Positions 1,972-20,252 of a DNA stretch of 27,624 nucleotides are shown in pieces (the stretch's first letter is position 1; each line of letters begins with the position of its first letter). The stretch comes from a virus. The position numbers and the translations under genes are program-made. The stretch lies in IMG/VR virus record IMGVR_UViG_3300046457_000204, positions 1-27,624 of that record; one strand, 5' to 3'. Below the pieces are notes generated by a model that was not told where the DNA came from, searched no databases, and saw nothing but the letters and a program-made list of their open reading frames with translations.

Positions 1972-2489
1972 GGGGTAACTCCAGTGGGATCAGGTTGAAT
2001 GCCAAACTTGGCGAGAAGCGCGGCGAGCAGCGCTTCGGTGCGCGCCGTGCGTTCGATGAGCTGGTGGATCAGCGCCGTGAGCTCGGCGCCCGCACGGCCC
2101 GCTTCGAGCGTCGCCACAAGCAGCGGCTCCAGGTCGTCAGGCGTCGCGACCGAGCCGAGCTCGAACGACTTCACGAGCGGCTCGCGTGGATCAGACTCAG
2201 GAATGCGGCCGTTGATGTAGACGCGCTTGCCCGATTCATCCTCGGCGATCGAGCCGTCTTCGCCCTTGTCGATGACGACGAGCTTGCGCTGCGCGCGCGC
2301 CTTGTGACCGAGCACCGATTCCCACCGGACCTTGAGCGGCTCCGGCACGGATTCATGGCTCACCTGCACGCCGTGCTGACCGACCGCGACTACGCGGCCG
2401 CTTGCTACACCGTGCTCCGGATGCTGGAAGTACAGATCGTCGCCCTCGACCACGCTGTGCGGCTGCTTCACGTTGAATTCGCGCGGCAT
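1968..2489 (-). CDS. Unknown head-cluster protein with N-terminal SH3/Tudor-like domain
   Basis: 173 residues. Residues ~12-62 (VVEGDDLYFQHPEHGVASGR then LKVRWESVLGH) align by eye with the C-terminal domain of the 139-residue neighbour, pointing to a shared beta-barrel fold. A middle segment carries a charged strand pair (KLVVIDKGEDGSIAEDESGK). The C-terminal ~70 residues are helical (LIHQLIERTARTEALLAALL), probably a coiled coil or oligomerisation helix. Its ATG overlaps the portal stop as TGATG and is preceded by TGGAGGAC. Position indicates co-expression with portal and MuF. No catalytic motif is seen. Confidence 0.75.
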   Translation of the reverse strand: MPREFNVKQPHSVVEGDDLYFQHPEHGVASGRVVAVGQHGVQVSHESVPEPLKVRWESVLGHKARAQRKLVVIDKGEDGSIAEDESGKRVYINGRIPESDPREPLVKSFELGSVATPDDLEPLLVATLEAGRAGAELTALIHQLIERTARTEALLAALLAKFGIQPDPTGVTP

Positions 2490-4342
2490 CAGTCCTCCAG
2501 CGAGTAGATGACGGGCAGCGCCTTGCCGAAGTCCTCTTCGTCCGGTGCGCCGAAGTCCGCGGGCTCGGCCGGAACGGTATCGCCCGGCGCCGCGTCGCCT
2601 GCTGCTGGATCACCCGAGCTCGCGACGTCACCCGGCTTACCCGCGTCGCCCACGGCGTCAGGCTTGCCGAAGTCCGGTTGCGGATCATCGCCCTTGCCGA
2701 AGTCGTCCGGCTGGCCCTTGCCGAAGTCACCATCGCCCGGCTTTTCGCCGTCAGGTGCGCCCGGTGCGCCGTCGCCCGGCTGGCCGAAGTCGCCTTCCTG
2801 CTGCGGCTGCTGCGACTGCTGATACAGGCTGACGAGCTGCGCATTGAGCGGAGCGCCGCCGATGAGCGGTTGCGGATGCGGATCGTAGCTTTCTTCGGAG
2901 CGCATCTCATCGACCGTCAGGATCAGCTTTTTCTTCTCGAACTTGCGATCGGCGTCCTCCGGATCGCGCCCGGTCCACCGGAACACGAACTTGTCGGAGA
3001 AGTCGCTGATGATGTAGTCGGTCAGCACGCCTTCCGCGTGCGAGAGCAGCGGCATCAAGCCGGAGTCCTTCGACGCGGCGAGCTTCTCGCCAGTGTCCGA
3101 TCCAGAGAGCGCCGACGTGCTGCCGCCGGAGAACGCGTCGAAGTTGATTTCCGCCGGGCTCATGCCGTAGATCGCGCAGATGATCGACGTGAGGAACGTC
3201 ATCCACTTCGCGAAATACATCTCGTTATAGTCCACGCCGAACTTCTCGAAGCCCGCGCGCGAGTCCTGATCCTTCGACACCATGACGGGCAACGACCACG
3301 CATTGTTGATGCCCTTGACCATCGAATTCCAATAGCGTTTGAAGCTCGCGATATCGTCCTGCGTGTAGTTGCCGGACAGATGCAAGAGCCCCTTCGGGAT
3401 GGCGTTCGAGTCGAAGCCCTTGATGTTATAGGTGAGCGCATTCAGGAAGCCCGTCACCACGCGAATGAGCAGCTCCGTCTCGGAGATGCCATAGCCCGAC
3501 GCGTTCACGTCCGTGCGCGGATTGCGCGGCTCGTAGATCAGATCGTCAAAGGTGTACGCCGTCGAGATGCGGCCCTGCACCACCTGCAGCGCGAAAACCT
3601 CGTCGTCGCCCTCATAGCCGTCTTCCGTGCAAAGGCGGATCGTCGCACCGTCCACGGCGTAGAAGCCGTCGATGCCGAGCGCCTTGTCGCGCTTCCATTC
3701 GAGCTCGATCGGCGCGGAGTCCATCGCGAGCGTGTCGCGCGTCCACTTCGCCATGAACTGGCTGAACGCGTCGCGGCGCAGTGCCTTGCGTCGGCGCGGC
3801 TTGAACTCCCACCCGCAATTCGTCATGAAGCGGTTGAGCAGCTGGATCGACTCGCGCTCGCTATCGGTGAGCCTATGGTGCTTGTCAACGTGCCGAATCT
3901 CGAAACCCGGCTTGTCGTCGCCCGACTCGGCGATGCGGCAAAAGCGCTGTACTTGGCGGATGCGCGTGAGAATGACCGCGTTCAGAATCGGCGTCTGATC
4001 CACCATCGCACGCAGCGAGTCGAACGAGAGCGCGCCCGGCCGGTCCCAATACTGGCCTTGCAGCTGCACTTGCCACTCATCGAGGATGACGGATTGGACG
4101 CCCGGCTCACCGTCGCGCGAGCGCTTCGACGGGAACGGCACGACGTTCGGATTGATCGCCTTGTTCATGTCGGCTTCCGCGAAGCCGTCTTGAATGAACG
4201 AGATGACGTCGCGCACCGCGTCGTCGGGTAGCAGATTCGAGATTGCTGAAGGCGCATGAGCCTTGTGGAGCTGCGCGAGCGCTTCCCCGCGCTCATCGGC
4301 GGGCGCGCTGGCGTCAAACGCCACGTTTTCGGCTTTGCTCAT
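2489..4342 (-). CDS. Phage portal protein
   Basis: 617 residues. The portal forms the dodecameric ring at the capsid vertex through which terminase pumps DNA. Evidence is the body (~residues 60-520) with portal-like segments such as GYGISETELLIRVVTGFLNA, the KGLLHLSG...FKRYWNSMVKG region and GMSPAEINFDAFSGG, plus its place near large terminase and MuF. Start: ATG at 4340-4342 preceded by AGGAGGAAT. An in-frame start 12 codons upstream has no such site and would run into the terminator region. The last ~100 residues are unusual: Pro/Gly/Asp-rich with repeated DFGK/DFGQ units (for example DFGKGQPDDFGKGDDPQ) ending in ALPVIYSLED. This tail is probably disordered and could be a docking platform. 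Confidence 0.88.
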   Translation of the reverse strand: MSKAENVAFDASAPADERGEALAQLHKAHAPSAISNLLPDDAVRDVISFIQDGFAEADMNKAINPNVVPFPSKRSRDGEPGVQSVILDEWQVQLQGQYWDRPGALSFDSLRAMVDQTPILNAVILTRIRQVQRFCRIAESGDDKPGFEIRHVDKHHRLTDSERESIQLLNRFMTNCGWEFKPRRRKALRRDAFSQFMAKWTRDTLAMDSAPIELEWKRDKALGIDGFYAVDGATIRLCTEDGYEGDDEVFALQVVQGRISTAYTFDDLIYEPRNPRTDVNASGYGISETELLIRVVTGFLNALTYNIKGFDSNAIPKGLLHLSGNYTQDDIASFKRYWNSMVKGINNAWSLPVMVSKDQDSRAGFEKFGVDYNEMYFAKWMTFLTSIICAIYGMSPAEINFDAFSGGSTSALSGSDTGEKLAASKDSGLMPLLSHAEGVLTDYIISDFSDKFVFRWTGRDPEDADRKFEKKKLILTVDEMRSEESYDPHPQPLIGGAPLNAQLVSLYQQSQQPQQEGDFGQPGDGAPGAPDGEKPGDGDFGKGQPDDFGKGDDPQPDFGKPDAVGDAGKPGDVASSGDPAAGDAAPGDTVPAEPADFGAPDEEDFGKALPVIYSLED

Positions 4343-4390
4343 TGGATTCCTCCTGTATGGGAGGAACCTTCGCATCACGACCAGACAGCA

Positions 4391-6661: not shown

Positions 6662-8080
6662 TTATGCGTATAACTCACACCCGGGATCAGTACGATTTAC
6701 CGTAAAGCCTCGTAAGGTACAGCCGCGCCCGTCGAACGACGAGCACGCGCCGCACGTCCCGGCCTGCCCGTTCACTTTCGCCAGAATGTTCTCCATGCCG
6801 GTATCGACCATCTGCGCGACTTCAGTCGGCAAGCCGTGCATCGAGCGCACAATCTCGATCTTCGACTGATACCCCTGATACTCCGGCAGAATGAATTGCG
6901 TGCGCCCGAAGTCGCCGCACAGCGCGTAGGCGTACACCGCCGCGTCGAGCAAGTCGTCATGCTCGCAGTCCGGCCCGAACGCGAGCATCTCTTCCACGAA
7001 GTACGTCGGCAGCGTCTCGTTGTGCCACACGAGCCCGTTTTCGTAGCGCGTGATAAGCCCCTGCGCACGCGTGAATTTATCCTTGTCCGGCCGAACCTGC
7101 CGAACCGGCAGATCAGTCGAGCGCAGCAGCTCTTCGACCACCGCCGCCTGATACTGCACCGCCTCGATCGCAATCTCTTCGGGCCGGTAGCGCGCGGCCT
7201 TCTCCTTGATGAACGTGAGCGCGTCGCGGAAACCCACGCGGCGCCGCTCGGCGTCCACGATCCACACACGCCCCTCCGGATCGACGCCGACCGTCACAAT
7301 CGCCGTGTAGTCGGCGTTTTGCTTCATGCTGATCGCCAAGTCCACGCCTTGATACAGACGCATGCCGCGCGGCGCCTGCCCGACGTGAATGTGCTCGGCC
7401 TTGATGAAGGTACCGGCGAAGGAAACGAACTGAGCGTCGAATTCCTGCATCGCCACGAGGCGCGGCAGCCCCTCCTTCATCTTCTCGACGTCGCGCACCG
7501 AGATATGCGGGTTCGTCGTCGTCGGCAGCTGCCAGCTCATCCATTCGTCGTCGCGATTGGGATTGGCCGGGTTGCCCTTGTCGAAGAGCTTTTTGAAGTA
7601 GTTGTCGCCCTTGGGCGTCGAGAAGAACCACGCCTCACCGCGAAAGTCGAGCAAGAGCGGCTGGATCGTCTGTTCCCACGCCTCTTCGAGCCGCTTAATC
7701 ATCGCGGCCTCATCGACCACGGCGACGGCGAATTTGCGGCCCCGCGACGCGTCTGGATCATCGAGCGAATAGCACTCGACCGAACCGCCGGTAATCAGGT
7801 CCAGGCGCTTGTTCTGTTCGGACTTCTGCGCCGTCACGTCCTTGAGCGTGCGGCAGAGCGTTCGCCAGCTCTCAAGCATCGTCTGATAGGTCGGCGCGTA
7901 CAGCGCGACCGGATAGCCGTTGAGCGCGCCCTTCTGGTTAGGGCCGTCGAGCAGGATTTCTTGCGCGAGGAACGTCTTGCCGAAGCGGCGCCCGCAGACA
8001 GGGACGTTATAGCGGCGGGACTCGCGCATGAGCTTGCGCTGCCCGTCGTGCAGAATAGGAAGGGTTACTTTGTAGGCCAT
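6662..8080 (-). CDS. Terminase large subunit (ATPase/nuclease)
   Basis: 472 residues. It packages DNA into the procapsid: the N-terminal ATPase powers translocation and the C-terminal RNase H-like nuclease cuts the concatemer. The Walker A variant is CGRRFGKT (residues 29-36), Walker B is AVAVVDEA (D123-E124), followed by the coupling segment WFFSTPKG (~151-158). The nuclease begins at YQGVDLAIS (D247), continues with a late acidic pair in HDDLLDAAVYAYA, and matches the Terminase_6 type. The last ~30 residues add a cysteine cluster (C443-x2-C446-x7-C454-x13-C468) that may bind zinc. The start has no Shine-Dalgarno site; the first ATG base is within the 8080-8098 palindrome. A terminator lies upstream. 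The small subunit is ~6.5 kb away, which is unusual. Confidence 0.93.
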   Translation of the reverse strand: MAYKVTLPILHDGQRKLMRESRRYNVPVCGRRFGKTFLAQEILLDGPNQKGALNGYPVALYAPTYQTMLESWRTLCRTLKDVTAQKSEQNKRLDLITGGSVECYSLDDPDASRGRKFAVAVVDEAAMIKRLEEAWEQTIQPLLLDFRGEAWFFSTPKGDNYFKKLFDKGNPANPNRDDEWMSWQLPTTTNPHISVRDVEKMKEGLPRLVAMQEFDAQFVSFAGTFIKAEHIHVGQAPRGMRLYQGVDLAISMKQNADYTAIVTVGVDPEGRVWIVDAERRRVGFRDALTFIKEKAARYRPEEIAIEAVQYQAAVVEELLRSTDLPVRQVRPDKDKFTRAQGLITRYENGLVWHNETLPTYFVEEMLAFGPDCEHDDLLDAAVYAYALCGDFGRTQFILPEYQGYQSKIEIVRSMHGLPTEVAQMVDTGMENILAKVNGQAGTCGACSSFDGRGCTLRGFTVNRTDPGCELYA

Positions 8081-8098
8081 GACGCCACGGTGGCGTCA
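8080..8098 (-). promoter_or_regulatory. Perfect inverted repeat over the large terminase start codon
   Basis: TGACGCCAC-g-GTGGCGTCA: 9-bp arms around a single base, with the A of the terminase ATG at its base. It replaces the expected ribosome-binding site. It could be a DNA-binding palindrome, an mRNA structure limiting initiation, or (at DNA level) a fourfold extension of the terminator region. Confidence 0.55.
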
Positions 8099-8108
8099 CG
8101 ACACAATG

Positions 8109-8139: not shown

Positions 8140-9036
8140 TCAGAAGAGCTTGCCCGGCGGCGCCTTGGGCTTGGGCGCTGGTCCCGCGCCGAGCGCTTCA
8201 GCGACGGCATGATCGGCGCTCATGTTGAGCAGCGAGTAAAGCCGATCGCGCGGCACGAGATTGAGCGCCTGCGCTTCCCATCCCATATCGACGGGCGTGC
8301 CGCCGACGCGCCGCGCCATGTAGTAGCGGGCGACCGACGTCGTTTTCTCGAAGTCGCCGAGAAAGCCGAGAATCTCGACCTTCAGCCCCGTCTCTTCGTA
8401 GGCTTCCTTGATCGCGTTCGCCTGAAGCGACAACTCAGGTTCCGCTTGCCCCTTCGGGAACGTCTGGTGATAGCCGCCGAACCGGTTGGTCGGGCTCATG
8501 AGCCAGTAGCGGCCGTCAGGCTCCACGACAACGACGCCCGAGGCGGCCGTCTTTTTGCCGGGCAGCTGCATTTGCGGCTCTTCGATATCCTTCTGACCGG
8601 CGACGTCGGCCCACCCTTCGGTCGTCGTCGGCGCATCGGTCCACGCCTTGAACGGCACGCCGTTGAGCGCACGCGGCATGCCTTCCATGCCGGGCGTGAA
8701 CGTCGCGACCGCTTCCGGGTTGCGCACGCTCGCCGCGTCGGTCGCCTTGTGCGGATAGCGCACGCGCACCTGCTTGCCCTTGTCATCGAGCTTCGGGTGC
8801 CAGTGCGCATTCGAGGCTTCAGACGGCTTCGAGTCGATCGGCTTTTGCGACGAGTAAGGCCAGCCCTTCGCCTTTCCCTCTCCCCCGAAATACGCATTCT
8901 CGGCGGCCTTCGTGCCGGACCACTTCGCGGGTTGCTTCGTGGCGGCCGCGCGCTTGTCGTCGTGCGGCTTGACGAACGTGCCGTCTTTCTTCGTGTAGCC
9001 GGGAATGTGCGATTTGAGAAAGAGGATCAGTCCCAT
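8140..9036 (-). CDS. Nudix hydrolase-domain protein with phage N-terminal tag-like segment
   Basis: 298 residues, much longer than a bare Nudix domain (~150). The Nudix box lies at residues 196-218 within FPKG-QAEPELSLQANAIKEAY and EETGL: the REUxEExGU core appears as KEAYEETGL, with the catalytic glutamates present and Arg replaced by Lys. Nudix enzymes hydrolyse nucleoside diphosphates linked to another group, such as ADP-ribose, NADH or capped RNA; the substrate here is unknown. Residues 1-25 (MGLILFLKSHIPGYTKKDGT then FVKPH) resemble the N-terminus of the 1480-residue protein. Residues ~125-150 (GVPFKAWTDAPTTTEGW) form a second conserved-looking block before the catalytic domain. Start ATG at 9036 with AAGGCAC upstream. 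A terminator follows the gene. Confidence 0.85.
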   Translation of the reverse strand: MGLILFLKSHIPGYTKKDGTFVKPHDDKRAAATKQPAKWSGTKAAENAYFGGEGKAKGWPYSSQKPIDSKPSEASNAHWHPKLDDKGKQVRVRYPHKATDAASVRNPEAVATFTPGMEGMPRALNGVPFKAWTDAPTTTEGWADVAGQKDIEEPQMQLPGKKTAASGVVVVEPDGRYWLMSPTNRFGGYHQTFPKGQAEPELSLQANAIKEAYEETGLKVEILGFLGDFEKTTSVARYYMARRVGGTPVDMGWEAQALNLVPRDRLYSLLNMSADHAVAEALGAGPAPKPKAPPGKLF

Positions 9037-9071: not shown

Positions 9072-9518
9072 TCACGACTTGCGAGCAGGCGCCTTGCGTG
9101 CGGCCGTCTTGCGCGCGGGCGCACGCGTCGCCACCGGCACGCCATCCGTATCGTCATCGCCCCACAGCGAGAGCGCCCGGCGCCCCGTATCGCGTGCATA
9201 CGGCGGAATCTCTTGCAGATCGGCCATGACGTGCCACACGCGATTACACGCCGTGTGCAGCCGGTCGTTCTTGATCGAGTTTTTGAAATTCGGGTAGTTG
9301 ATATCCATGAGCTGCTTGGAAATCACCCCCGCGACGATCGTGCGATGGATGACGGCGCGATACAGGTAGTCGCGGCCGGGCGTGCGCTCGACCGTGACCG
9401 TGACGTCCTTGAAGACGCGCTCGATATCGCCCTTGCGACGTGCGCGCACCTTCAGGTTCGCGGCGTCGCCTGGAATCGAAACGACGGAGAGGAATGCGTC
9501 AGAGAGAGTGAGCCACAT
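9072..9518 (-). CDS. Unknown protein with basic Ala/Lys/Arg tail
   Basis: 148 residues. The N-terminal ~115 residues show strand-like segments (NLKVRARRKGDIERVF, VTVTVERTPGRDYLYRAVIH) and helices, with no recognised motif. The C-terminal tail (ATRAPARKTAARKAPARKS) resembles histone H1-type basic tails that bind nucleic acid nonspecifically. The start at 9518 has AAGGAAAAG upstream. The operator at 9566-9578 lies 50 bases before it, so this gene opens a separately regulated leftward unit with the Nudix gene. A DNA-associated or head-packaged role is a guess. Confidence 0.65.
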   Translation of the reverse strand: MWLTLSDAFLSVVSIPGDAANLKVRARRKGDIERVFKDVTVTVERTPGRDYLYRAVIHRTIVAGVISKQLMDINYPNFKNSIKNDRLHTACNRVWHVMADLQEIPPYARDTGRRALSLWGDDDTDGVPVATRAPARKTAARKAPARKS

Positions 9519-9591: not shown

Positions 9592-10047
9592 TCATCGAAT
9601 CCCGAGCAACATCGCCACGACACTGTCGAGCACGTCACGAAGCCGCTTCCCGGCTTGCTCATCGGTCATCTCGCCGTTCTCGACGGCTTCCGACGAGCGC
9701 ACCACGTTACGAGCCAGCCAGATAAAGAGCGCCTTTCCCTCATCGTCGTACTGAGCGGCATCGCTGCACAGCACGCGGATTTTCGAGCCGAGCCGGATCG
9801 GGTTGTTCCACGGCTGCGCGGCGAACTCGGCATTGCGCCCCATGAAAATGTCACCGAAGTGGCCCGCGAGCGCCTCGATGCGCTCGATCGGCTTGTCCGC
9901 GCCGGGCTTGCCGCTGTGGAAGTCCTTGCGCACGCCGATCACGTCCTGCGCGAACTCGGTCACGAGCCGGTTCACCACATTGAAATCCCCGAGCGAAGGC
10001 TTCCCGCCCGGGTTGCCTTCGAATACCAGTCCTGCGAGCGGGTTCAT
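9592..10047 (-). CDS. Unknown protein downstream of the polyvalent protein
   Basis: 151 residues. Start chosen at ATG 10045-10047 (AGTGAGGC seven bases upstream), nine bases after the stop of the 1480-residue gene; longer readings overlap that gene. Mostly helical and acidic, with NRLVTEFAQDVIGVRKDF, IRLGSKIRVLCSDAAQYDD and a C-terminal helix LRDVLDSVVAMLLG. No recognised family. Being tightly coupled to the large protein, it could be its chaperone, inhibitor or packaging partner, but that is positional inference only. Confidence 0.7.
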   Translation of the reverse strand: MNPLAGLVFEGNPGGKPSLGDFNVVNRLVTEFAQDVIGVRKDFHSGKPGADKPIERIEALAGHFGDIFMGRNAEFAAQPWNNPIRLGSKIRVLCSDAAQYDDEGKALFIWLARNVVRSSEAVENGEMTDEQAGKRLRDVLDSVVAMLLGIR

Positions 10048-10055
10048 CTTTTGCC

Positions 10056-13000
10056 TCACTTCAAAATAGTGTCGATATACGTCTGGTCCGGCGGGAGCAT
10101 CAGCACTTCGAGACGGAACGACTCTCCTTCCATCTTGCGGCTGAGCACCATGAAGCGCGCGCCCGGAAGCGTCGTAATCTCCATCTCGCCAGAAAACGAG
10201 CCCGAACCGAATGTGTCGATCGCCTTCGCGCCCGGCGCATAGTGGATCGTCATGCAATGCGAGCCGAAGCCCTTCGTGCCAGTCGGACTCATCGAGCAGC
10301 ACATCGAGCCCGGGTTTTGGAACACCAGACCCTCGGACGACTTCATGAACTGATCGATCATCTCCTGATCCATCGAAATCCACTTAGTGATCGTCGTTCC
10401 GGCCGGTTTGGTCTGCGCGGCCGCATACAGATCGTGCAGAATCGGCCGCGTGGCCTTGCCGTGCGAGTCCGTGTCCTTGCCTTCGCGGTAGGCGTTATTG
10501 TAGCTGCCGGTCGCCTGCACACTTTTGATGAAGTGCTTGACGTTGGCGTTATATTTCTCGTAGAGCTTGTAGCCCGCCTCCTTGATGCCTGGAATTTTGA
10601 CGGCGCTCTTCGTCTCCTTCGGCTTGAACTTATTCCATGCGCTTTCCATGCCGAGCGCGATCCAGAAGCCGAGCTTCTCGTTGGCCGGAACGTGATGCAC
10701 CGACTTGCCGAACAGGTGCGGCTTGAACGACTCGGAGAGCGCCTTAATGTCTTCCGAGACGTGCTCGTCAAACGCCTTGAGCGGCGCGGGCGGGAACGCA
10801 ATGAGCTCCAGCGTCGCGCAGCACGCTTCCCAAAATTCCTTGACGTGCTTCGACGGGTGCTCAACGATCGACTTCATGCCGATCGACGCGCCGGTTTCCT
10901 TGTCGAATGCCTCGTACTGGTATTTCTGAAGCGCGATCAGATCGCCCTTCTTCGCGAACTCCAGCACGTCGGCCTGATCCTTCGCGTTCGCCGCATTGAC
11001 GTGCGTCTTGCTCGACAGCCCTTGGCCTTGCCCCTTGTAGTTGTGGAAGTCGAGCGGCTTCGGCAGCTGCGCCGCATCGACCTTCAGCTTGCGTAGGTCC
11101 GGCTTTGCTTCCGGCGCGGCGGGCGCGGCGGGCGAAACTTCCTTCGCGGCGACAATCTTCGGTGCGGCCGTCGCGGGTGCTTCGCCCGAACCGACCGCGT
11201 TCGCGCCGACAACAGCCTCGTAGAGCGCCTTGGCGTACTTCGCCATGAGCTCGGCATTCGTCCCGTACTTGGAGTCCGCTGAGTTGATTACCTTGAAGCC
11301 CGCGATCTTGACCATGTCACCCTTGGTCGCGATCTTCTTTTTGAGCCCTTCAGCCCCTTGCGTCTCGGCGATCAGCTTGAGCTCCTTGCACTTCGCCGCG
11401 TATTTGATCTTGCCGGTGCCCGCCTCCATCTTCGGAACCGGCACTTGCGCGACGAGCGTCTTCACGTCCACGGCAGGCGCGGCGGCAGGCGTCGGCGCGG
11501 GCGTGGGCGCCACGGCTTGAGCGACTGGCGCGGGCTCCGGCGCCGTCTCTTTCACGCTCGCGATACCTGGCGCCGTCGCACTCTGGATCGGAAGCTTTGA
11601 GAGAACGTCCGCGCGGCGCTCGACCAGCTTTGCGGCGAGCTTGAGCTTCTCCGCTTCGTCGCCCGGGCCGTACTTCTCGCACAGCGCCGTGATCGTCTCC
11701 GGAGACACGGCCGCGACCTTCTTCATCGACTCGTGGATCTGCGCGTCCGTCAGCCCCTTGAAGGCGTGCGCCGCATAGACGTTCGTGCCGTCCTTCAGCG
11801 AGTTGAGCTCGCCGACCGTCTTGCCGAACGCGTCGCCCTTCGGTGCGCCCATCGCGCGGTAGAGCAGCGCCCCGCCGACGTCGAGCCGCACGGCGTGCCC
11901 GTTCGGCTTGATCTGCATGTTGTCGTAACCGGTGCCGACCACGTCCCAATTCGCGAGCCACGCATCGACCGCGAAGCCTTCGGCCACGCCCGGCGCACCG
12001 GCCGCGAGCGCCGACGAATCCTTCTTCACGCCGTCGATGATCTTGCTCGCGATGCCGACCTTGCCGCCTAGCGTGATGAGCTTGAGCTCCGGCACTTCGA
12101 TACCGGCGGCCTCGTAGAGCTTCGCCGCGAGCAGCTCGTTCTTCGTGTGTGCTTCCGACGCCGGGAACTTGCAGTACCACTTCTGGCCGTGCTCGTCCGC
12201 GTATTCGCCACCCTCGTTCGAACCCTTCTGTCCGCCCGTCTTGGTCCAGCCGTCGATCGACTCCGGCGCATCCGGCGCGGCTGCCGGTGCGGCGGGTGCC
12301 TCCGGCGCGGGCGCGGCCTCCGCCGGTTGCTCGGCCTGCGCGTGCGGCGTGGCGAGCTGCTTGGCGTACTGGATCAGCGCCTTGCTATTCGGCGACGTGC
12401 CCGCCCACGTCTTCGAGTCCTCGTTCATCATCGCGAGCACGGCCGCCGAGTCGCCCTTCTCGACCAGCGCCTTCACCTTGGCCGCGACCTTCTTGTAGTA
12501 CTCGACCGTCTTGCCGGTGAACGTCGGCTCGGCCGCGTCGCCGCTCGGCTCGTCGCCGCCGACCTTGTGCCAGCGGCCGTTCTTCAGCACGTAGGTGACG
12601 CCGTTCTCGACCTTCGTGTCGCCTTCTTTCGGCCCCTCTTCCTGCGTGGTCGGGAACGACGATTCACTCTCCGGATGCCCGAGGTACGCGAGCGAGTCCT
12701 TCACGTACTGGCCGTATTTGCCGATCGGCGAACCCTTCGCCGCTGTTGGGCTCACCTTGTCCAGCTCGTTCTTCAGCCCGGCCGCGTCGCCTGCATTGAG
12801 CATCGTCTCGGCGCCATCGACCAAGCCCTGCACGAACGGGTTATTCTCGAACTGCGGCTTTTCCGGCTTCGGCGCGGCGCCCGCGCTGGCGGCTTGGTGC
12901 GCCTCCAGCTTCTTCACCAGATTGCCGATCCAAGCGTGCGTCGCTGTACCACCCGCCTGCCAGCTGAGCAGGTTCTTCAGCTTTGCCAGATCGCCGGACT

Positions 13001-14498
13001 TCGCGAAGGACACCGCCTTGAGGGCCGCCGCCTTGTCTACGGCATTCGGAGGATCGCTGATCGCGTCATCGGGCAAACCGAGCGACGGCTTGACGACTTG
13101 CGAGAGCGCAGTGTCGTGCAGATGCGCGAGATGATCCGCAATCTCGTCCTCGTCGTCGTCGGGGAAGTGATATTCGTGATATGACGTCAAGCCCGCCAAT
13201 GCCTGTGCATAGGCTTTCTCGCCATTGGGCGACATTTCGGCAGCTTGATAAGCGGCAGCCTGTTCGGGCGTCGGAGTCTTGCCCTTGGAAATCGCCTCGA
13301 CCCATCCATCGAGCGTCTCGTTCGACTGCGGCGCAGCGCTCGCGGCCTCACCCTTCCCGGCTTGCGCTTCGGCGAGCTTTTGCTTCGCGTAGGCGGCCGC
13401 GCCGAACTTCTCCTGCTGTTCGAGCGCGTTGGCGTAGTCTTTCAAGTCGTCAAACTCGCCGTCCTCCGCGAACGAGTCGATCGTATCTTTGTGATAGTCG
13501 CTCAGCCCATACTGCTTCTTGAGCCCGTTCAGGATCGAGATCGCTTGGCTGTACTTCGTCGGCTCGTCACCGTCGAGCTTCTCGGCATGCTTGATGTCGT
13601 ATTCCGCGTTCGTCTTGATGCACGCTTCGAGCAGCGGCAGCGACGCAGCCTTTTGGTCGTCCGACATACCCTCCCACGTCGCCTGACCCTCCTTGATCCA
13701 CTCGTCGTTCTTCGCCGCGATGCCGTACAGGAACGTCGTCGCATAGTGCGGGAAGGTATCTCCGAGCTCGTTCATCGCCTCGAAGTCCATGCCCTTCAAG
13801 CCTTCGACCTTCGCGGCAATCTCGTCCTTGACCTTCTTCAGCTCGTCGGACTGCGGCGTCGCTTCGGCAACCGGCGTCGGCTCAGGCGCGACGTCCTGCT
13901 TAGGCGGAGCTTGCTCAGGCGGGCTCGCGGGCGCTTCCGGCTGCGTAGCCTCAGGCGCGGGCGCGGCGGCCGCTTCTGCGGGCTGCTGTTCGAGCAGATC
14001 GCCCTGATCGGGATTGGACTGATACGCGGCGACTGCGGCCTTGTAGGCGTCGAGCTTGCCCGCCTTCTCGAACTCGGCTTCGGCCTTCGCTCGCTTCGCC
14101 GCGTCTTGTGCCAGGAACGCTTTCACCTGCGACGGGATCGGCGTCGCGCCGCTCAGGATGGCGACGCGGAACTTCGCGGCCCGGGCGCGCATGCTCGCGG
14201 CGTCCTGCAGCTCGGTCGCGTGCTTGAGCAGCACCGGCACCTTGTGCTCTTCAGGGAGCTCGTTGAACCATCCGTGCTTGGTCAGGTTCTTGTGCGCTTC
14301 CTTCTGCGTCGCCGAGCCTTGACCGGAGAGCACCTTGTGATCGTCGTGATCGTCGGAAACGTGGACGTGCGCATAGTGGCCCTGAACGACAGTGCCGTCA
14401 TGCTTGGTGAACGTCGGGATCCACATCTCTTTTTTGGACGTGGCTTTAAGCAGGTCAATCTCGAACGGATTGACCATGAAGATGATGCGAGCGGTCAC
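10056..14498 (-). CDS. Giant polyvalent protein: repeat modules, kinase-like and ADP-ribosyltransferase-like domains
   Basis: 1480 residues. Residues 1-41 contain IIFMVNPFEIDLLKATSKKE and then IPTFTKHDGTVVQGH, resembling the Nudix protein N-terminus. From ~165 to ~740, Ala/Pro/Glu linkers alternate with helical modules carrying a GDxxxL signature (D503, D571 and D683; again at D1186). Residues ~746-1000 resemble HipA/PI-kinase-like folds: GGSN-like loop (GGQKGSNEGG), Lys777 in WYCKF, WLANWD (D852), YDN (N860) and RLDVGG (D873). The C-terminal ~200 residues look like an ADP-ribosyltransferase: S1402-M-S1404 in CCSMSPT and the ExE pair E1438/E1440 in FSGEMEITTLPGARF. The usual first Arg appears as Lys1372. 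GTG start with TGAGGGG upstream, inside a hairpin. Such multidomain proteins are known in phages as polyvalent proteins, often delivered with DNA. Confidence 0.85.
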   Translation of the reverse strand: MTARIIFMVNPFEIDLLKATSKKEMWIPTFTKHDGTVVQGHYAHVHVSDDHDDHKVLSGQGSATQKEAHKNLTKHGWFNELPEEHKVPVLLKHATELQDAASMRARAAKFRVAILSGATPIPSQVKAFLAQDAAKRAKAEAEFEKAGKLDAYKAAVAAYQSNPDQGDLLEQQPAEAAAAPAPEATQPEAPASPPEQAPPKQDVAPEPTPVAEATPQSDELKKVKDEIAAKVEGLKGMDFEAMNELGDTFPHYATTFLYGIAAKNDEWIKEGQATWEGMSDDQKAASLPLLEACIKTNAEYDIKHAEKLDGDEPTKYSQAISILNGLKKQYGLSDYHKDTIDSFAEDGEFDDLKDYANALEQQEKFGAAAYAKQKLAEAQAGKGEAASAAPQSNETLDGWVEAISKGKTPTPEQAAAYQAAEMSPNGEKAYAQALAGLTSYHEYHFPDDDEDEIADHLAHLHDTALSQVVKPSLGLPDDAISDPPNAVDKAAALKAVSFAKSGDLAKLKNLLSWQAGGTATHAWIGNLVKKLEAHQAASAGAAPKPEKPQFENNPFVQGLVDGAETMLNAGDAAGLKNELDKVSPTAAKGSPIGKYGQYVKDSLAYLGHPESESSFPTTQEEGPKEGDTKVENGVTYVLKNGRWHKVGGDEPSGDAAEPTFTGKTVEYYKKVAAKVKALVEKGDSAAVLAMMNEDSKTWAGTSPNSKALIQYAKQLATPHAQAEQPAEAAPAPEAPAAPAAAPDAPESIDGWTKTGGQKGSNEGGEYADEHGQKWYCKFPASEAHTKNELLAAKLYEAAGIEVPELKLITLGGKVGIASKIIDGVKKDSSALAAGAPGVAEGFAVDAWLANWDVVGTGYDNMQIKPNGHAVRLDVGGALLYRAMGAPKGDAFGKTVGELNSLKDGTNVYAAHAFKGLTDAQIHESMKKVAAVSPETITALCEKYGPGDEAEKLKLAAKLVERRADVLSKLPIQSATAPGIASVKETAPEPAPVAQAVAPTPAPTPAAAPAVDVKTLVAQVPVPKMEAGTGKIKYAAKCKELKLIAETQGAEGLKKKIATKGDMVKIAGFKVINSADSKYGTNAELMAKYAKALYEAVVGANAVGSGEAPATAAPKIVAAKEVSPAAPAAPEAKPDLRKLKVDAAQLPKPLDFHNYKGQGQGLSSKTHVNAANAKDQADVLEFAKKGDLIALQKYQYEAFDKETGASIGMKSIVEHPSKHVKEFWEACCATLELIAFPPAPLKAFDEHVSEDIKALSESFKPHLFGKSVHHVPANEKLGFWIALGMESAWNKFKPKETKSAVKIPGIKEAGYKLYEKYNANVKHFIKSVQATGSYNNAYREGKDTDSHGKATRPILHDLYAAAQTKPAGTTITKWISMDQEMIDQFMKSSEGLVFQNPGSMCCSMSPTGTKGFGSHCMTIHYAPGAKAIDTFGSGSFSGEMEITTLPGARFMVLSRKMEGESFRLEVLMLPPDQTYIDTILK

Positions 14499-14499
14499 T

Positions 14500-14532
14500 G
14501 ATGCCCCTCAGGTGAAGTGTCTGAGAGGCATC
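14500..14532 (-). promoter_or_regulatory. Hairpin enclosing the Shine-Dalgarno site of the giant gene
   Basis: GATGCC-c-CTCAG pairs with CTGAG-a-GGCATC around a 9-base loop. The TGAGGGG ribosome-binding site of the GTG at 14498 is within the stem. An adjacent inverted repeat TCGTCGTG-t-CACGACGA (14531-14547) overlaps the small terminase stop. Ribosomes ending at 14539 could open or leave this structure, tying expression of the giant protein to upstream translation. Confidence 0.5.
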
Positions 14533-14538
14533 GTCGTG

Positions 14539-15144
14539 TCACGACGAGCCGCGTGGATCAGAATGTGGCGCGTGCTGGCTTAGGCTTTCGTCGCGGCGCT
14601 CGATGATGATCGTCGTCTTGCCCTTGTCATCGCCCTGATCCTGATCGATGCCCCACGCCTTGCGCTCGCCGTCTTGAATGATCTTCGTGGCTTCGGACGT
14701 GATCTTGCCGAGCTTGGCTTTGTCGAAGTCGTTTTCGGTAATCGCCTCGTTCACCAGCGAGCGCACGTCTTCCCACTCGGTGCGATGACGGCTCAGCAGC
14801 TCGGCGCGATGATCCACGGCGCGCGTGACGGCTTCAGCGCGGTCCTGTGGCGTCGGCAGCATGGCGGGAGGCGCGCGCTCGATCTTCGGCTTGTCGGCGG
14901 CGGCAGCGCCCTTCTTGCCGATCGGCGTGGGCGGAGCGCTCTTCTGATCGGCCGCCCGGTGCGCCTCGCGCACGATATGCGGCATGTCGGCTTTCTTCTG
15001 CCAGCTGTCCTTCTTCGCACGCAGCGCGACGGCCTGCTTCGTCACGCCAAATTCCTGGGCGACGTGGACGTAGTTGACCTTTGGGTCAGCCTCCCACACC
15101 GCGCGGGCCTGAGCCCATTCGGCGTCGGTCAGTTTTCCGGCCAT
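14539..15144 (-). CDS. Terminase small subunit-like protein
   Basis: 201 residues. An N-terminal helix-turn-helix (LTDAEWAQARAVWEADPKVN with VHVAQEFGVTKQAVALRAKK, residues ~5-45) and a Lys/Pro-rich linker are followed by a helical middle (AEAVTRAVDHRAELLSRHR then WEDVRSLVNEA, ~105-150) and a basic/acidic tail. This matches the layout of phage small terminases, which recognise the packaging site and present it to the large subunit. The ATG overlaps the HU-like gene stop as TAATG. The family call rests on architecture, not on a diagnostic motif. It is separated from large terminase by the giant gene and three others. Confidence 0.72.
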   Translation of the reverse strand: MAGKLTDAEWAQARAVWEADPKVNYVHVAQEFGVTKQAVALRAKKDSWQKKADMPHIVREAHRAADQKSAPPTPIGKKGAAAADKPKIERAPPAMLPTPQDRAEAVTRAVDHRAELLSRHRTEWEDVRSLVNEAITENDFDKAKLGKITSEATKIIQDGERKAWGIDQDQGDDKGKTTIIIERRDESLSQHAPHSDPRGSS

Positions 15145-15422: not shown

Positions 15423-15503
15423 GATTCCCTTCGAGAGTTGCGCGGGCTCTATCGCCCGCACACTCACGATCGCATCACGACTCGCTGAATCACCCTGCGA
15501 GCG

Positions 15504-15881: not shown

Positions 15882-16393
15882 GCGTTCCCCGGCGGCAGAA
15901 TGCAAACCGGATGCGGGATAGCGCAACCGAACACGACCGACGTCGATTCGCTGCGCGCGATCGACACGAGCGCCTCGACGCTCGTCGCCACGTTATCGAC
16001 GCTGCGCACCACGCCCCGGCCGCCCGACACGCACGTCAGCGACGCGGTACCGATGCGCGCGAGCTTGCGCGGCCGTCCGCCCTTCGCATTGCGGCCGCGC
16101 TTCGTCTCGAGAGTGCGGTTGTAGCAGCTCACGCAAATGCGATCGCCGACGAGCCGCGTCGCGCCCCGCAGGCACCGCGCACAAGTGCGCCGCTTGATGG
16201 CCGTCACCTTTATCTCGACGTGCGCATGCTTTGCGCCGAGCGGGCAGCCCGCGCAGGCCAGGTACCCGCCGCCCTTTTGCGAGCCCTGAAACTGCGTCAC
16301 GCAGCGATCCACCGACAGGCTCGCGCGCAGCTTCTCGCATTCGAAGTACTGGCCTTCGACGTCGGGATAGGTGAAGTACTGGATCTCACTCAT
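15878..16393 (-). CDS. Cys-rich, zinc-finger-like unknown protein
   Basis: 171 residues. Start ATG at 16391-16393 overlaps the DUF1367 gene stop (ATGA). An N-terminal half with conserved-looking CVTQFQ and LACAGCPLG contains two or more Cys pairs; the next segment TCARCLRGATRLVGDRICVS plus CYNR forms a second four-Cys unit followed by a basic patch (KRGRNAKGGRPRKLAR). This is a likely double zinc-binding, DNA-contacting protein. I do not recognise an annotated family with certainty; a transcription or recombination accessory role is possible. Confidence 0.7.
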   Translation of the reverse strand: MSEIQYFTYPDVEGQYFECEKLRASLSVDRCVTQFQGSQKGGGYLACAGCPLGAKHAHVEIKVTAIKRRTCARCLRGATRLVGDRICVSCYNRTLETKRGRNAKGGRPRKLARIGTASLTCVSGGRGVVRSVDNVATSVEALVSIARSESTSVVFGCAIPHPVCILPPGNA

Positions 16394-16860
16394 TCGAATG
16401 CCAACAGTTGATTGACGACTTGTTCCACTTCCTGTTCGGACGCGAACTTCGCGTGCCGAAGAATCTTTTCCCACACGACGCGCAGCACGGCCGCATAGAC
16501 GTCGTTGAACTCAAACTCGTCGCAGCTCGCGAAGCTGATCGACTTCGCCTTGAGCTTCATTGCCCCGTCGAGCCGGTAGATCGCCTCGCAGTGCCCCGCC
16601 AGAATCAGAATGTCCTCGCGGAACGATTCGAACTCTTTGCCGATCGGCTCGCCCTTGTACGTCTTATCGACCGGCGGTTCCCACATATCGAAGGCGAGCG
16701 TCAGGAGCTTGAAAAACTTCTTGTGGAATTTGTAATTCCGGATTTTCGTCGCCTCGATGCCGACGCCAGTGCCGAGCTTGAGCGACGCGATGAACTTCTC
16801 GGCTTCCGCATCGAACGGCGCGAGCAGATTGCCCTTGACGCGCTGGAATATCGCTTTCAC
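16390..16860 (-). CDS. DUF1367-family phage protein
   Basis: 156 residues with GTG start (16858-16860) overlapping the upstream stop as GTGA; GGGGATTACCA precedes it. The segment LLAPFDAEAEKFIASLKLGT followed by RNYKFHKKFFKLLTLAFDMW is the hallmark of DUF1367, a family found in many phages of proteobacteria near replication or recombination genes. The biochemical function is not known. The C-terminus is helical and acidic. The context (helicase loader upstream, zinc proteins downstream) fits an early role. Confidence 0.8.
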   Translation of the reverse strand: MKAIFQRVKGNLLAPFDAEAEKFIASLKLGTGVGIEATKIRNYKFHKKFFKLLTLAFDMWEPPVDKTYKGEPIGKEFESFREDILILAGHCEAIYRLDGAMKLKAKSISFASCDEFEFNDVYAAVLRVVWEKILRHAKFASEQEVEQVVNQLLAFE

Positions 16861-17243
16861 TGGTAATCCCCGTCGAGCACGCGGCGGCGCTCAGCCTCGT
16901 TCTTGAACCCGGCCGCGATGCGGTCAGCAGCAGGCTTGCCGTGGAAATAGACCCACTCGGCATGAAGCGCACGCTTGTCAGCGGCCGTCAGGCACTTCTC
17001 CGCGCGCCGGAAGGCCGCTTGAAGCGCCCGGCCGCAGGCGTTCGTGATCGCGAATTCGAGCGCCTCGCGCTCGGCGTCCTCGCGCGGCATCTTGTCGATG
17101 AATTCGAGCTGCGCGGCGAGCCCCTGATAGACGGCTTCGTCCTTGTCGGTCCAGTACACGCCTTTCTTGATCGCGCGCTTGGGCTCTCCGGAGAAAGCCC
17201 CGCCCGACTGAAAGCGCAGCGTAACGAGCTCGCTCACGCTCAT
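16857..17243 (-). CDS. Unknown early protein (128 aa)
   Basis: Start ATG at 17241-17243 overlaps the helicase-loader stop as ATGA, with a GGGG run just before. The N-terminus MSVSELVTLRFQSGGAFSGE is followed by helical segments (YQGLAAQLEFIDKMPREDAE, NACGRALQAAFRRAEKCLTA) and the end is charged (FKNEAERRRVLDGDYQ). No metal-binding or catalytic motif is evident. It is translationally coupled to genes on both sides, so it is probably part of the replication unit. Confidence 0.7.
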   Translation of the reverse strand: MSVSELVTLRFQSGGAFSGEPKRAIKKGVYWTDKDEAVYQGLAAQLEFIDKMPREDAEREALEFAITNACGRALQAAFRRAEKCLTAADKRALHAEWVYFHGKPAADRIAAGFKNEAERRRVLDGDYQ

Positions 17244-18040
17244 GCACGGCCCCGGTATGAGTCCCAATCGCACGCCAGCACCCGGCCGCCGCCTTCGCGA
17301 AGGCGATCGACCACGCGCACCGACAGATACTTTTGGATGCCTTCGAGCGTCTCATTCGAAATCACGACGGTCGGCTTGCAGGCGTCGTATCGGCCATTGA
17401 GAATCGCGAACAGGATCATTTGCTCGTTGTCACCGCCGCCCTGCACGCCGACCTCATCCAGAATCAGCAGATCGGGCTCCACGAAGCGGGCGATCGACTC
17501 GCGCTCGGAGTACTTCGAGCCGGGCCGGTACGACTCACGCACGAATTGCACCGCCTCATAGGTGCGCGCAAAAAACGGCAGCGAGCCGCTGCGCGCGACC
17601 GTGCGAGCGATCGATACGGCGAGATGCGTCTTGCCCGTGCCCGGCAACCCGCACAGGATCAGGTTCTTACCCGACTCGCGCACCGACTCCCATGAACCCG
17701 CGTAATCGGCGCACGCATCGAGCACGGCCTTCTGTGCGGGCGACTCGACCACGTAGGACTTGAACGACGCGTTGGCGAAACGCTTCGGAACTTCCGCGCC
17801 CTGCCACCCGCTCAGCAGACTCGTGCGGCGCGCGTCGCGGCGCATGCCGTCTTGCTCATCGCGCGCGGCCTGGGCCTCACGCTCGGCGATGCACTTGCCA
17901 CAACCACCCCACCGCTTGACGCCGCCGATCATCGCGGCCGTCTCGACATAGCCACCGTGCTTCTCGCACGTCGCGTCGCGGTACTCCATCTCGAACTTGC
18001 CGAATTCAGAAGCGACCGATTGAAATTTAGAACGTCCCAT
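17240..18040 (-). CDS. DnaC/IstB-like helicase loader (AAA+ ATPase)
   Basis: 266 residues. Loads a replicative helicase onto the phage origin. Walker A is GLPGTGKT (131-138), Walker B LLILDE (191-196), and later LSVRVVDRLREGG carries the region where sensor and arginine-finger residues lie in DnaC/IstB proteins. An N-terminal zinc site is suggested by C25, H28, C47 and C50 (TCEKHG and GGCGKC). Start ATG at 18038-18040 with AAGGGGATTA upstream; it overlaps the initiator gene end by 14 bases. Having no visible helicase gene, the phage presumably recruits host DnaB or encodes one outside the window. Confidence 0.9.
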   Translation of the reverse strand: MGRSKFQSVASEFGKFEMEYRDATCEKHGGYVETAAMIGGVKRWGGCGKCIAEREAQAARDEQDGMRRDARRTSLLSGWQGAEVPKRFANASFKSYVVESPAQKAVLDACADYAGSWESVRESGKNLILCGLPGTGKTHLAVSIARTVARSGSLPFFARTYEAVQFVRESYRPGSKYSERESIARFVEPDLLILDEVGVQGGGDNEQMILFAILNGRYDACKPTVVISNETLEGIQKYLSVRVVDRLREGGGRVLACDWDSYRGRA

Positions 18041-18896
18041 CAGCGTTAATCCCCTTGTGATAATCGATCGCTTTGTAGTCGGCCATCGTCTGCGGCTTCT
18101 TGTGAGCTGCCGCGCCGTTCGCCTTGTGCATGTGATTCCAGACCTTTTGCAGATCGCGGACCAAGATGCCGATATCGTGCTGGCACTCGGCATAGAAGCC
18201 GGTGAGCGTCAGGTAGTGCGCCACCACGAGCGGCGCCTTCTCCGCGCCGACCGTCTTCACGATCGTGCTGAGCGCTGCGTTCACCTTCGCGCTGCGCAGC
18301 GGCTCGATGCTGTAGCGATTCAGGTAAGCAGCCGAGTACGCTTCCCACGATGCCGTCGTCGGTGCGGGTTCCTTTTTCGGAGCCTCTTTTTTCGGCGCTG
18401 CCGGAGTCGCGTCAGCGGCTTCGGGAAAGAGTGAATCCTTGCTCGTAGTCAGTCCTTGCTTAGAATCAGTACTTACTAGCGTCGGATTTGCCGTATGCGG
18501 AAAAGCCGTAAGCGGCAAACCCGCATGCGGATCGACCGTATCCGGATTTTCCGTAAGCGGCGAAGCCAATTCGACCACCGGAGCGGTAGCAAACTCGGAC
18601 ACCATGTAGTCGGTCCCGCCGAACGTGCCGTCACCCTTCTTCGACTGCACGCGCTGAAGGTAGCCGACCGTCAGCAACTCCTTGAGCAAACCATAGACGG
18701 CGTCGCGCCCGGACTGCTTCGCCGAGGCAGCCGTTTCGTTGACGAGATTGGCCGGTGAGACGGTCCAATGGTCCGGCTTGCCGAGCAGGAAGATCAGAAG
18801 CCCACGCGCGCCCCACGAGAGGCGCTGATCCTCGCTGATGCGCTTGTCGAGAATATAAAAATTGCCGTCTGGTCGGGCGGCCCGAATAATCGCCAT
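18027..18896 (-). CDS. Replication initiator-like protein with internal iterons
   Basis: 289 residues. Residues ~25-100 form a winged helix-turn-helix (LSWGARGLLIFLLGKPDHWT, NLVNETAASAKQSGRDAVYG, LLKELLTVGYLQRVQSKKGD), as in lambda O-type initiators. Residues ~113-138 contain a proline-led five-residue repeat (PLTEN, PDTVD, PHAGL, PLTAF, PHTAN), the translation of five 15-bp DNA repeats. A Lys/Pro linker follows, then a C-terminal helical domain (~195-289) that could contact the loader. ATG overlaps the RusA stop as TAATG. Position directly before the helicase loader matches the lambda O-P order. Confidence 0.8.
   Translation of the reverse strand: MAIIRAARPDGNFYILDKRISEDQRLSWGARGLLIFLLGKPDHWTVSPANLVNETAASAKQSGRDAVYGLLKELLTVGYLQRVQSKKGDGTFGGTDYMVSEFATAPVVELASPLTENPDTVDPHAGLPLTAFPHTANPTLVSTDSKQGLTTSKDSLFPEAADATPAAPKKEAPKKEPAPTTASWEAYSAAYLNRYSIEPLRSAKVNAALSTIVKTVGAEKAPLVVAHYLTLTGFYAECQHDIGILVRDLQKVWNHMHKANGAAAHKKPQTMADYKAIDYHKGINADGTF
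18491..18560. repeat. Iteron array, probable replication origin
   Basis: Five 10-bp near-palindromic units with exactly 15-bp period: CCGTATGCGG (18491), CCGTAAGCGG (18506), CCGCATGCGG (18521), CCGTATCCGG (18536), CCGTAAGCGG (18551). The 5-bp spacers vary. The array is inside the initiator gene, and the neighbouring 18440-18485 stretch is more AT-rich than the surroundings. This is the lambda-type arrangement (iterons within O plus an AT-rich unwinding region). The length and spacing are too short for CRISPR. Confidence 0.75.
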
Positions 18897-19372: not shown

Positions 19373-19393
19373 CAATTCATCACCAATTTTTAT

Positions 19394-19406
19394 TACCTGC
19401 TAGGTA
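19394..19406. promoter_or_regulatory. Operator: perfect-arm palindrome TACCTGCTAGGTA
   Basis: The cleanest copy of the recurrent element, between the small HTH gene and rusA. TTGTAC overlaps its minus-strand right arm and could be a -35 box, but a good -10 at proper spacing is lacking. It is placed to control entry into the replication unit. Confidence 0.65.
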
Positions 19407-19415
19407 CAATCCATC

Positions 19416-19625: not shown

Positions 19626-19632
19626 GCGGCGA

Positions 19633-19661
19633 ACTTTACCCGGTAGATAAACCAAAGTAAA
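19633..19661 (-). promoter_or_regulatory. Leftward promoter (TTTACT-17-TAAAGT) with internal operator
   Basis: On the minus strand: TTTACT (19656-19661), 17-bp spacer, TAAAGT (19633-19638). The operator TACCCGGTAGATA (19637-19649) fills the spacer and touches the -10 box. Bound repressor would block it. It lies between the divergent HTH (19625) and CI-like (19780) genes, in the position of an immunity control region. Confidence 0.65.
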
Positions 19662-20238: not shown

Positions 20239-20252
20239 GATACGGAGGCTCT

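What the first reader, a model, noticed from the sequence alone, without database searches (positions are those of the whole stretch)
10056..14498. 1480-residue polyvalent protein joining kinase-like and ADP-ribosyltransferase-like domains
One gene fills 16% of the window and encodes tag-like N-terminus, several helical modules, a HipA/PI-kinase-like domain (Lys777, D852, N860, D873) and a C-terminal ART-like domain (S1402-x-S1404, E1438-x-E1440). Proteins combining such effector domains are known in phages as polyvalent proteins and are thought to be co-injected to act on host targets. This combination and order, between small and large terminase, looks unusual.
Basis: partly seen in the sequence, partly recalled or inferred. 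Interest (0 to 1): 0.82.

Follow-up and report, generated by a model that had tools for sequence, protein, structure and literature searches.

The report
Phage virion kinase–ADP-ribosyltransferase effector protein
A phage gene encodes one very large protein that carries a kinase-like enzyme and an ADP-ribosyl-transferring enzyme, probably packed in the virus head and injected to take over the bacterium; relatives are common in phages but the kinase half is essentially undescribed.

Summary
Window 10056-14498 on the MINUS strand encodes an intact 1480-aa protein. AlphaFold models are confident (pLDDT 95.7 and 92.0). Residues 746-970 take a HipA/CtkA/PI4K-type kinase fold (best solved match H. 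pylori CtkA, Z 16.5); residues 1287-1475 take a C3/VIP2/iota-type ADP-ribosyltransferase (ART) fold (Z 14.5). K777, E788, D852, N860 and D873 are invariant in 74 relatives; S1402, E1438 and E1440 in 40. Two corrections: S1404 is not conserved, and the usual NAD-binding Arg is Lys1372 here (R in 30, K in 10 of 40), so the activity of this copy is uncertain.

The combination is not unusual. It recurs in Aeromonas, Pseudomonas, Yersinia, Enterobacter and Morganella phages (Yersinia homologue annotated particle-associated) and in dozens of IMG/VR contigs, in a conserved cassette: giant gene, small protein, MW-protein, NUDIX hydrolase. A late-promoter-like motif precedes the giant, terminase and portal genes. 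NUDIX and giant share an N-terminal tag; 11 contigs fuse the same kinase to NUDIX. Prophage relatives read MuF-kinase-ART.

Best explanation: a late-made, head-packaged, co-injected effector that ADP-ribosylates host proteins, with a kinase of unknown target. A new variant of phage polyvalent/Alt-like effectors.

The parts
10056..14498 (-). Giant gene, 1480 aa: tag + Ala/Pro-rich helical stalk + kinase + accessory domain + ART
   Evidence: intact ORF; relatives over the full length, best segments 59-61% identical, in L001/L002
14355..14450 (-). N-terminal tag, residues 17-48 (LLKATSKKEMWIPTFTKHDGTVVQGHYAHVHV), similar to the start of the NUDIX protein (FLKSHIPGYTKKDGTFVKPHDD)
   Evidence: GYx[RK]x[DN]GxxV pattern in 35 of 70 NUDIX ORFs, a slightly looser form in 6 of 49 giants, 0 of 4089 other ORFs; the window giant itself reads TFTKHDGTVV
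12558..12614 (-). Short recurring motif, residues 629-647 (contains GVTYVLKNGRWHKVG)
   Evidence: similar Y-x-L-x-x-GRW motifs at the N-terminus or repeated in relatives (ST4, fHe-Yen8-01); among all ORFs of the loci found only in giants of at least 700 aa
11589..12263 (-). Kinase domain, residues 746-970; K777, E788, D845, D852, D859, N860, D873
   Evidence: AlphaFold pLDDT 95.7; CtkA Z 16.5, CotH 13.8, PI4KIIalpha 12.4, HipA 11.8; residues invariant in 74; HipA_C below cut-off in 46 of 74
10641..11108 (-). Accessory conserved region N-terminal to the ART, residues 1131-1286
   Evidence: alignment A3 and model; outside the range covered by the PDB matches
10074..10640 (-). ART domain, residues 1287-1475; K1372, S1402, E1438-x-E1440
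   Evidence: C3 exoenzyme Z 14.5, iota Ia 13.3, VIP2 13.2; profile hit to Lmo0066 8e-11 and VIP2 1.7e-9; ADPrib_exo_Tox in 17 of 40 members
14530..14545 (-). Late-promoter-like motif GTCGTGACACGACGAT before the giant gene
14500..14532 (-). 12-bp hairpin directly before the GTG start; its 3' arm holds a GAGG ribosome-binding-like sequence
   Evidence: z -4.1 to -6.6; also in L001 and L002
9592..10059 (-). Small cassette protein, about 155 aa, overlapping the giant's stop
   Evidence: found in 46 of 53 loci with at least 3 kb downstream
9072..9518 (-). MW-protein, 148 aa (MWLTLSDAFLSVV...)
   Evidence: 46 of 53 loci
8140..9036 (-). NUDIX hydrolase, 298 aa, with N-terminal tag
   Evidence: PHROG 10313, 4.8e-7; NCBIfam Nudix 1.1e-6, below cut-off; in 51 of 53 loci
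14539..15144 (-). Terminase small subunit
   Evidence: PHROG 1206, 2.3e-5
6662..8080 (-). Terminase large subunit, with late motif at 8087-8102
   Evidence: PHROG 2, 2e-35; motif
2489..4378 (-). Portal protein, with late motif at 4366-4381
   Evidence: PHROG 12, 9.4e-39; motif

Best explanation
The gene encodes a late-expressed, head-packaged effector of a tailed phage that is ejected with the DNA (inferred). Its C-terminal ART domain uses host NAD+ to ADP-ribosylate host protein(s), probably on arginine because it has an E-x-E motif (inferred from fold and motif). Its CtkA/HipA/PI4K-like domain is an ATP-dependent kinase that phosphorylates a host target or the cassette's own proteins (fold and residues shown; activity and substrate unknown). 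The N-terminal tag and the Ala/Pro-rich helical stalk serve packaging or ejection (inferred). The neighbouring NUDIX protein, with a similar tag and in some phages the same kinase domain, is co-packaged and would hydrolyse ADP-ribose, NAD-type metabolites or NAD caps (inferred). Shown here: both folds (as predicted models), conserved active-site residues, the conserved cassette, and a sequence motif shared with terminase and portal genes.
For: Folds. Invariant residues. ART profile against solved ARTs. Purifying selection. Same fusion in seven sequenced phages. The fHe-Yen8-01 record marks the giant, the small protein and the NUDIX-position protein as particle associated. Cassette conserved. 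Tag restricted to giant and NUDIX ORFs. Late-type motif upstream of the giant, large terminase and portal in the window (4 hits against 0.13 expected), of holin, baseplate, capsid protease, portal and giant in ST4, and near 28 of 38 giant genes against 1.5 expected. Prophage homologues with MuF or minor capsid protein 2 N-termini and ART C-termini. Literature: T4 Alt is head-packaged and modifies RNA polymerase; phage ARTs cluster with head and packaging genes (PMC9503650).
Against: Lys1372 replaces the NAD-binding Arg. In iota toxin R-to-K drastically lowers activity (PMC3202787), so this copy could be weak or altered in chemistry. No virion proteomics exists for this phage; the particle-associated label comes from a record annotation whose data were not seen. 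No substrate is known for either enzyme. The kinase could be a binding module rather than an enzyme.
Confidence: 0.66

Rival explanations
1. The ART of this subclade (K1372, C1400) is catalytically altered: a NAD-binding or NAD glycohydrolase domain, or a degenerate ART. The kinase is then the working effector.
For: K at the R position in 10 of 40 relatives; R295K in iota toxin drastically lowers kcat (PMC3202787).
Against: S1402, E1438 and E1440 are invariant in all 40; dN/dS 0.18-0.26 across the ART domain; the K subclade keeps the NUDIX partner.
Confidence: 0.2
2. The kinase-like domain is not a host-directed effector but a regulatory or self-control module of the cassette, for example auto-phosphorylating, or phosphorylating ART or NUDIX to keep them inactive during assembly.
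For: The same kinase family is fused both to ART and to NUDIX and to several other C-terminal domains, as a shared module would be; HipA-family kinases are known to auto-regulate by phosphorylating their Gly-rich loop (own knowledge; a G-S-N-x-G loop is conserved here).
Against: No direct evidence; known effector kinases of phages (T7 kinase, cited in PMC5512222) act on host proteins.
Confidence: 0.25
3. The protein is mainly structural (internal or ejection scaffold) and the enzyme-like domains are vestigial.
For: Large low-complexity helical part; near-terminase gene order; particle-associated homologue.
Against: The kinase catalytic residues are invariant in 74 sequences, while stalk and linker evolve faster (dN/dS 0.39-0.74 window versus L001/L002).
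Confidence: 0.06

Closest known systems
Giant 'ADP-ribosyltransferase' of Aeromonas phage ST4, Pseudomonas phages Dolphis and Jeremy, Yersinia phage fHe-Yen8-01
   Same: Same order kinase then ART; same small/NUDIX/MW cassette; late motif upstream
   Different: Window ART region about 44% identical to ST4 and about 23-26% to Pseudomonas/Yersinia; K instead of R; the kinase half is not annotated in those records
T4 Alt (head-packaged ART)
   Same: ART in a late/head context, predicted co-injection; some relatives match the Alt-like PHROG 802 in the ART
   Different: Alt has no such kinase domain (own knowledge) and is about half as long; no PHROG match for the window protein itself
Polyvalent proteins (Iyer et al. 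2017, PMC5512222)
   Same: Large phage protein with several effector domains near portal/terminase genes
   Different: ART there is the HYD2 clade and the kinase is a C-lobe-less Ser/Thr/Tyr-type kinase; here a K/R-S-E ART and a CtkA/HipA-type kinase with full C-lobe
Helicobacter CtkA / HipA / HipT kinases
   Same: Fold and catalytic K/E/D/N/D
   Different: About 11-17% identity in the structure alignments; embedded in a phage protein beside an ART; no HipB/HipS partner recognised in the cassette
C3, VIP2 and iota-type ART toxins
   Same: ART fold, S and E-x-E
   Different: K for R, C-C-S for S-T-S, additional conserved region before the ART, phage protein with a presumed bacterial target

Membership tests
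R-S-E (C3/VIP2/Alt-like) mono-ADP-ribosyltransferases | ART fold | tested here: met
   Z 14.5 to C. limosum C3, 13.2 to VIP2; 176-177 residues at about 3 A
R-S-E (C3/VIP2/Alt-like) mono-ADP-ribosyltransferases | Catalytic E-x-E (or Q-x-E) | tested here: met
   E1438 and E1440 invariant in 40
R-S-E (C3/VIP2/Alt-like) mono-ADP-ribosyltransferases | S of the S-T-S strand | tested here: inconclusive
   The last serine, S1402, is invariant in 40; the first position is C in 26 (window included) and S in 14
R-S-E (C3/VIP2/Alt-like) mono-ADP-ribosyltransferases | Arg (aromatic-R/H) in the first strand | tested here: not met
   K1372 in the window; R in 30 of 40 relatives. So described as a K-S-E variant with the ART fold, not filed as a canonical member
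HipA/CtkA/PI3-4K-like kinases | Fold with both lobes | tested here: met
   CtkA Z 16.5 over 215 residues; CotH, PI4KIIalpha and HipA follow
HipA/CtkA/PI3-4K-like kinases | ATP Lys, Glu, catalytic Asp, metal Asn/Asp | tested here: met
   K777, E788, D852, N860, D873 all invariant in 74
HipA toxin family (Pfam HipA_C) | Score above the curated cut-off | tested here: not met
   15.6-18.6 bits against 30.5 for the window protein
HipA toxin family (Pfam HipA_C) | HipB/HipS-type partner gene | tested here: inconclusive
   No such gene recognised in the cassette, but the two small proteins are of unknown fold
Phage polyvalent proteins (Iyer 2017) | Several effector domains in one phage protein near portal/terminase | tested here: met
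   Two enzyme-like domains; terminase and portal neighbours
Phage polyvalent proteins (Iyer 2017) | HYD2-clade ART / C-lobe-less kinase as described for these domains | tested here: not met
   ART is K/R-S-E; kinase has a C-lobe and is CtkA/HipA-like (PMC5512222)
Phage polyvalent proteins (Iyer 2017) | Packaged in the virion and injected | tested here: inconclusive
   Homologue annotated 'phage particle associated protein'; not measured for this phage
T4 Alt | ADP-ribosylates host RNA polymerase | not testable with these tools
   Needs a biochemical assay
NUDIX hydrolases (neighbour gene) | Nudix box G-x5-E-x7-R-E-U-x-E-E-x-G-U | tested here: inconclusive
   K-E-x-x-E-E-x-G-L kept; first Glu displaced and R is K in the window; canonical in ST4

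The most novel reading that the evidence does not exclude
The CtkA/HipA-like domain is the constant core of a previously unnamed, widespread class of virion-packaged phage effector kinases (468 IMG/VR matches, 56 genome matches). It is joined on its N-side to head proteins in some phages and prophages (MuF, minor capsid protein 2) and on its C-side to exchangeable effector ends (several ARTs, a second common C-terminal domain, HD, a metallopeptidase-like end), and it is also fused to NUDIX. In this phage group, kinase, ART and NUDIX form one co-injected NAD/ADP-ribose module under a dedicated late promoter, with cross-regulation by phosphorylation.
Probability: 0.35. Interest if true: 0.75.

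Novelty: new variant of a known kind. Interest (0 to 1): 0.57.

Why it matters
Head-packaged ARTs are known from T4 Alt, but a kinase on the same presumed virion protein, in a conserved cassette with a NUDIX hydrolase, would mean that many phages inject a pre-made kit that both phosphorylates and ADP-ribosylates the host at time zero. The kinase family is not recognised by PHROGs or NCBIfam for the proteins tested and falls below Pfam's cut-off, so hundreds of phage genes now called hypothetical or just 'ADP-ribosyltransferase' gain a testable second activity. Cultured relatives (ST4, Dolphis, fHe-Yen8-01) make it directly testable.

Tried and rejected
1) Search for the giant against PHROGs and NCBIfam: nothing; the window ART alone gives no Pfam hit, so the ART call rests on relatives, profile and model. 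2) phmmer of the whole protein against PDB: nothing meaningful. 3) The kinase profile against PDB sequences gave only noise plus HipA at E 1.6, so the kinase call rests mainly on the model. 4) S1402-x-S1404 as the ART serine motif: rejected, S1404 varies. 5) 'Rare combination': rejected. 6) Literature search for HipA/CtkA kinases in phage virions, for fHe-Yen8-01, and for GTCGTGA as a known phage promoter: no relevant paper found in the open library; the library lacks most subscription journals, so this is weak evidence of novelty. 7) The start-codon hairpin as a general feature of the family: rejected; the same stem is in the window, L001 and L002, while other relatives vary. The region 1131-1286 was outside the PDB matches of the ART model, which does not show that its fold is new.

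Full report
OBSERVATION. Window 10056-14498 holds an uninterrupted 1480-codon gene on the minus strand. The window is itself a virus record of 27,624 bases with small terminase, large terminase and portal on the same strand. The GTG start is conserved in relatives that lack the later ATG.

FOLDS. With alignments of 74 kinase and 40 ART relatives taken from IMG/VR loci, AlphaFold gave mean pLDDT 95.7 for residues 738-978 and 92.0 for 1130-1480. The first matches H. pylori CtkA (Z 16.5, 215 residues, 3.3 A), then CotH (13.8), PI4KIIalpha (12.4) and HipA (11.8). The second, over its residues 158-344 (protein 1287-1473), matches C3 exoenzymes (Z 14.5), iota Ia (13.3) and VIP2 (13.2). Sequence profiles agree for the ART (Lmo0066 8e-11, VIP2 1.7e-9); for the kinase only Pfam HipA_C recurs, in 46 of 74 members, and for the window protein it is below its cut-off.

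ACTIVE SITES. K777, E788, D845, D852, D859, N860, D873, G875 and G876 are invariant in 74 sequences; S1402, E1438 and E1440 in 40. In the ART, S1404 is not conserved. The strand-1 basic residue is Lys1372 here (R in 30, K in 10), and the S-T-S motif reads C-C-S. In iota toxin the equivalent R295K mutant is drastically less active (PMC3202787), so catalysis by this particular copy needs testing. Selection on the domains is purifying (window versus L001/L002 dN/dS: ART 0.18-0.26, kinase 0.24-0.33, region 545-745 and linker 0.66-0.74).

DISTRIBUTION. tblastn finds the kinase-plus-ART protein in Aeromonas phage ST4, Pseudomonas phages Dolphis, Jeremy and Touem01, Enterobacter phage phiT5282EW, Yersinia phage fHe-Yen8-01 and Morganella phage Mecenats66, and the kinase alone in Gordonia phages and Actinomycetia phage DSL-LC01. 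IMG/VR has 468 kinase matches, of which the best 80 were kept. In the fetched loci 61 ORFs (window, phage records and overlapping copies included) carry both domains and 42 the kinase without this ART family. Some of the latter end in other ARTs or a zincin-like HExxH region, and 20 proteins of the wider set in another common C-terminal domain. Bacterial genomes and prophages give 56 more kinase loci, including MuF-kinase-ART, MuF-kinase, minor-capsid-protein-2-kinase-ART, kinase-NUDIX and kinase-HD proteins. Matching viral structure models are annotated portal protein, ADP-ribosyltransferase and Nudix proteins. The C-terminal end type needs 13 changes on a FastTree kinase tree, far fewer than in shuffles (64) but more than the minimum of 3, so ends are mostly inherited and sometimes exchanged (the tree is a quick one with weak inner branches).

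CASSETTE. Downstream lie a small protein (9592-10059), an MW-protein (9072-9518) and a NUDIX hydrolase (8140-9036). Of 53 ART loci with at least 3 kb of downstream sequence (some near-identical), 51 have the NUDIX, 46 the small protein, 46 the MW-protein and 43 all three. The fHe-Yen8-01 record labels the giant, the small protein and the NUDIX-position protein as particle associated; the underlying data were not seen. In 11 contigs the NUDIX protein carries its own C-terminal copy of the same kinase domain, and three further giants hold both domains. A GYx[RK]x[DN]GxxV N-terminal tag occurs in 35 of 70 NUDIX ORFs; a slightly looser form is in 6 of 49 giants (the window giant has the related TFTKHDGTVV); the pattern is in 0 of 4089 other ORFs of at least 80 aa. 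Common packaging is an inference from this.

EXPRESSION SIGNAL. GTCGTGAYnnnAnnnT occurs four times in the window (0.13 expected, none of 100 shuffles reaches four), always on the minus strand: before the portal, large terminase and giant genes, and at 15466-15481 upstream of the small-terminase region. In ST4 all nine GTCGTGAY sites lie on the minus strand shortly upstream of genes, among them holin, baseplate, head-tail adaptor, capsid protease, portal and the giant. Among 38 distinct giant genes 28 have GTCGTGA near the start (1.5 expected), many of them exactly 22 nt before it. This is most simply a late promoter (inferred). It places the giant among virion genes.

MECHANISM. Shown: predicted folds, conserved residues, cassette, motif. 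Inferred from established knowledge: late synthesis, packaging and co-injection as for T4 Alt (PMC9503650); arginine-type ADP-ribosylation from E-x-E; NUDIX clearing ADP-ribose or NAD-type molecules; phosphorylation of a host or cassette protein by the CtkA/HipA-like domain. ST4 also encodes nicotinamide-nucleotide adenylyltransferase and PnuC, consistent with NAD demand.

COMPARISON. It probably works like Alt and like polyvalent proteins, but it is not a canonical member of the families involved: the ART lacks the Arg and is not of the HYD2 type, and the kinase is not the C-lobe-less type described for polyvalent proteins. I describe it as a new variant of phage head-packaged effector proteins, the new part being the CtkA/HipA-type kinase family and its joint cassette with ART and NUDIX.

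Noticed in passing
window 4366-4381, 8087-8102, 14530-14545, 15466-15481 (minus strand): Motif GTCGTGAYnnnAnnnT before late genes; GTCGTGA also stands before late genes of Aeromonas phage ST4 and near the start of 28 of 38 giant genes, often exactly 22 nt before it. Looks like an undescribed late promoter.
   Followed up: partly
window 14500-14532 (minus strand): 12-bp hairpin ending one base before the GTG start of the giant gene, hiding a GAGG ribosome-binding-like sequence; also in L001 and L002. Possible translational control.
   Followed up: partly
L017 4441-6717, L022 5158-6672, L025 5128-6672, L028 5200-6681, L029 5125-6675, L035 4966-6672: NUDIX protein of the cassette fused at its C-terminus to the same kinase domain as the giant protein.
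   Followed up: partly
C-termini of the kinase proteins in L051, L057, L060, L070, L083, L085-L090: A second, frequent C-terminal domain after the kinase (YHN...GGAxYxFTR...FDD...WPDGR), possibly another ART type with H-Y-D residues; not modelled.
   Followed up: no
L150 16159-17899 (Aeromonas phage ST4): Nicotinamide-nucleotide adenylyltransferase and PnuC genes in a phage that carries the kinase-ART cassette.
   Followed up: no
window 16390-23504: Replication and recombination block: NinB, DnaC-like loader, replication initiator, RusA on the minus strand; single-strand annealing protein and exonuclease on the plus strand.
   Followed up: no
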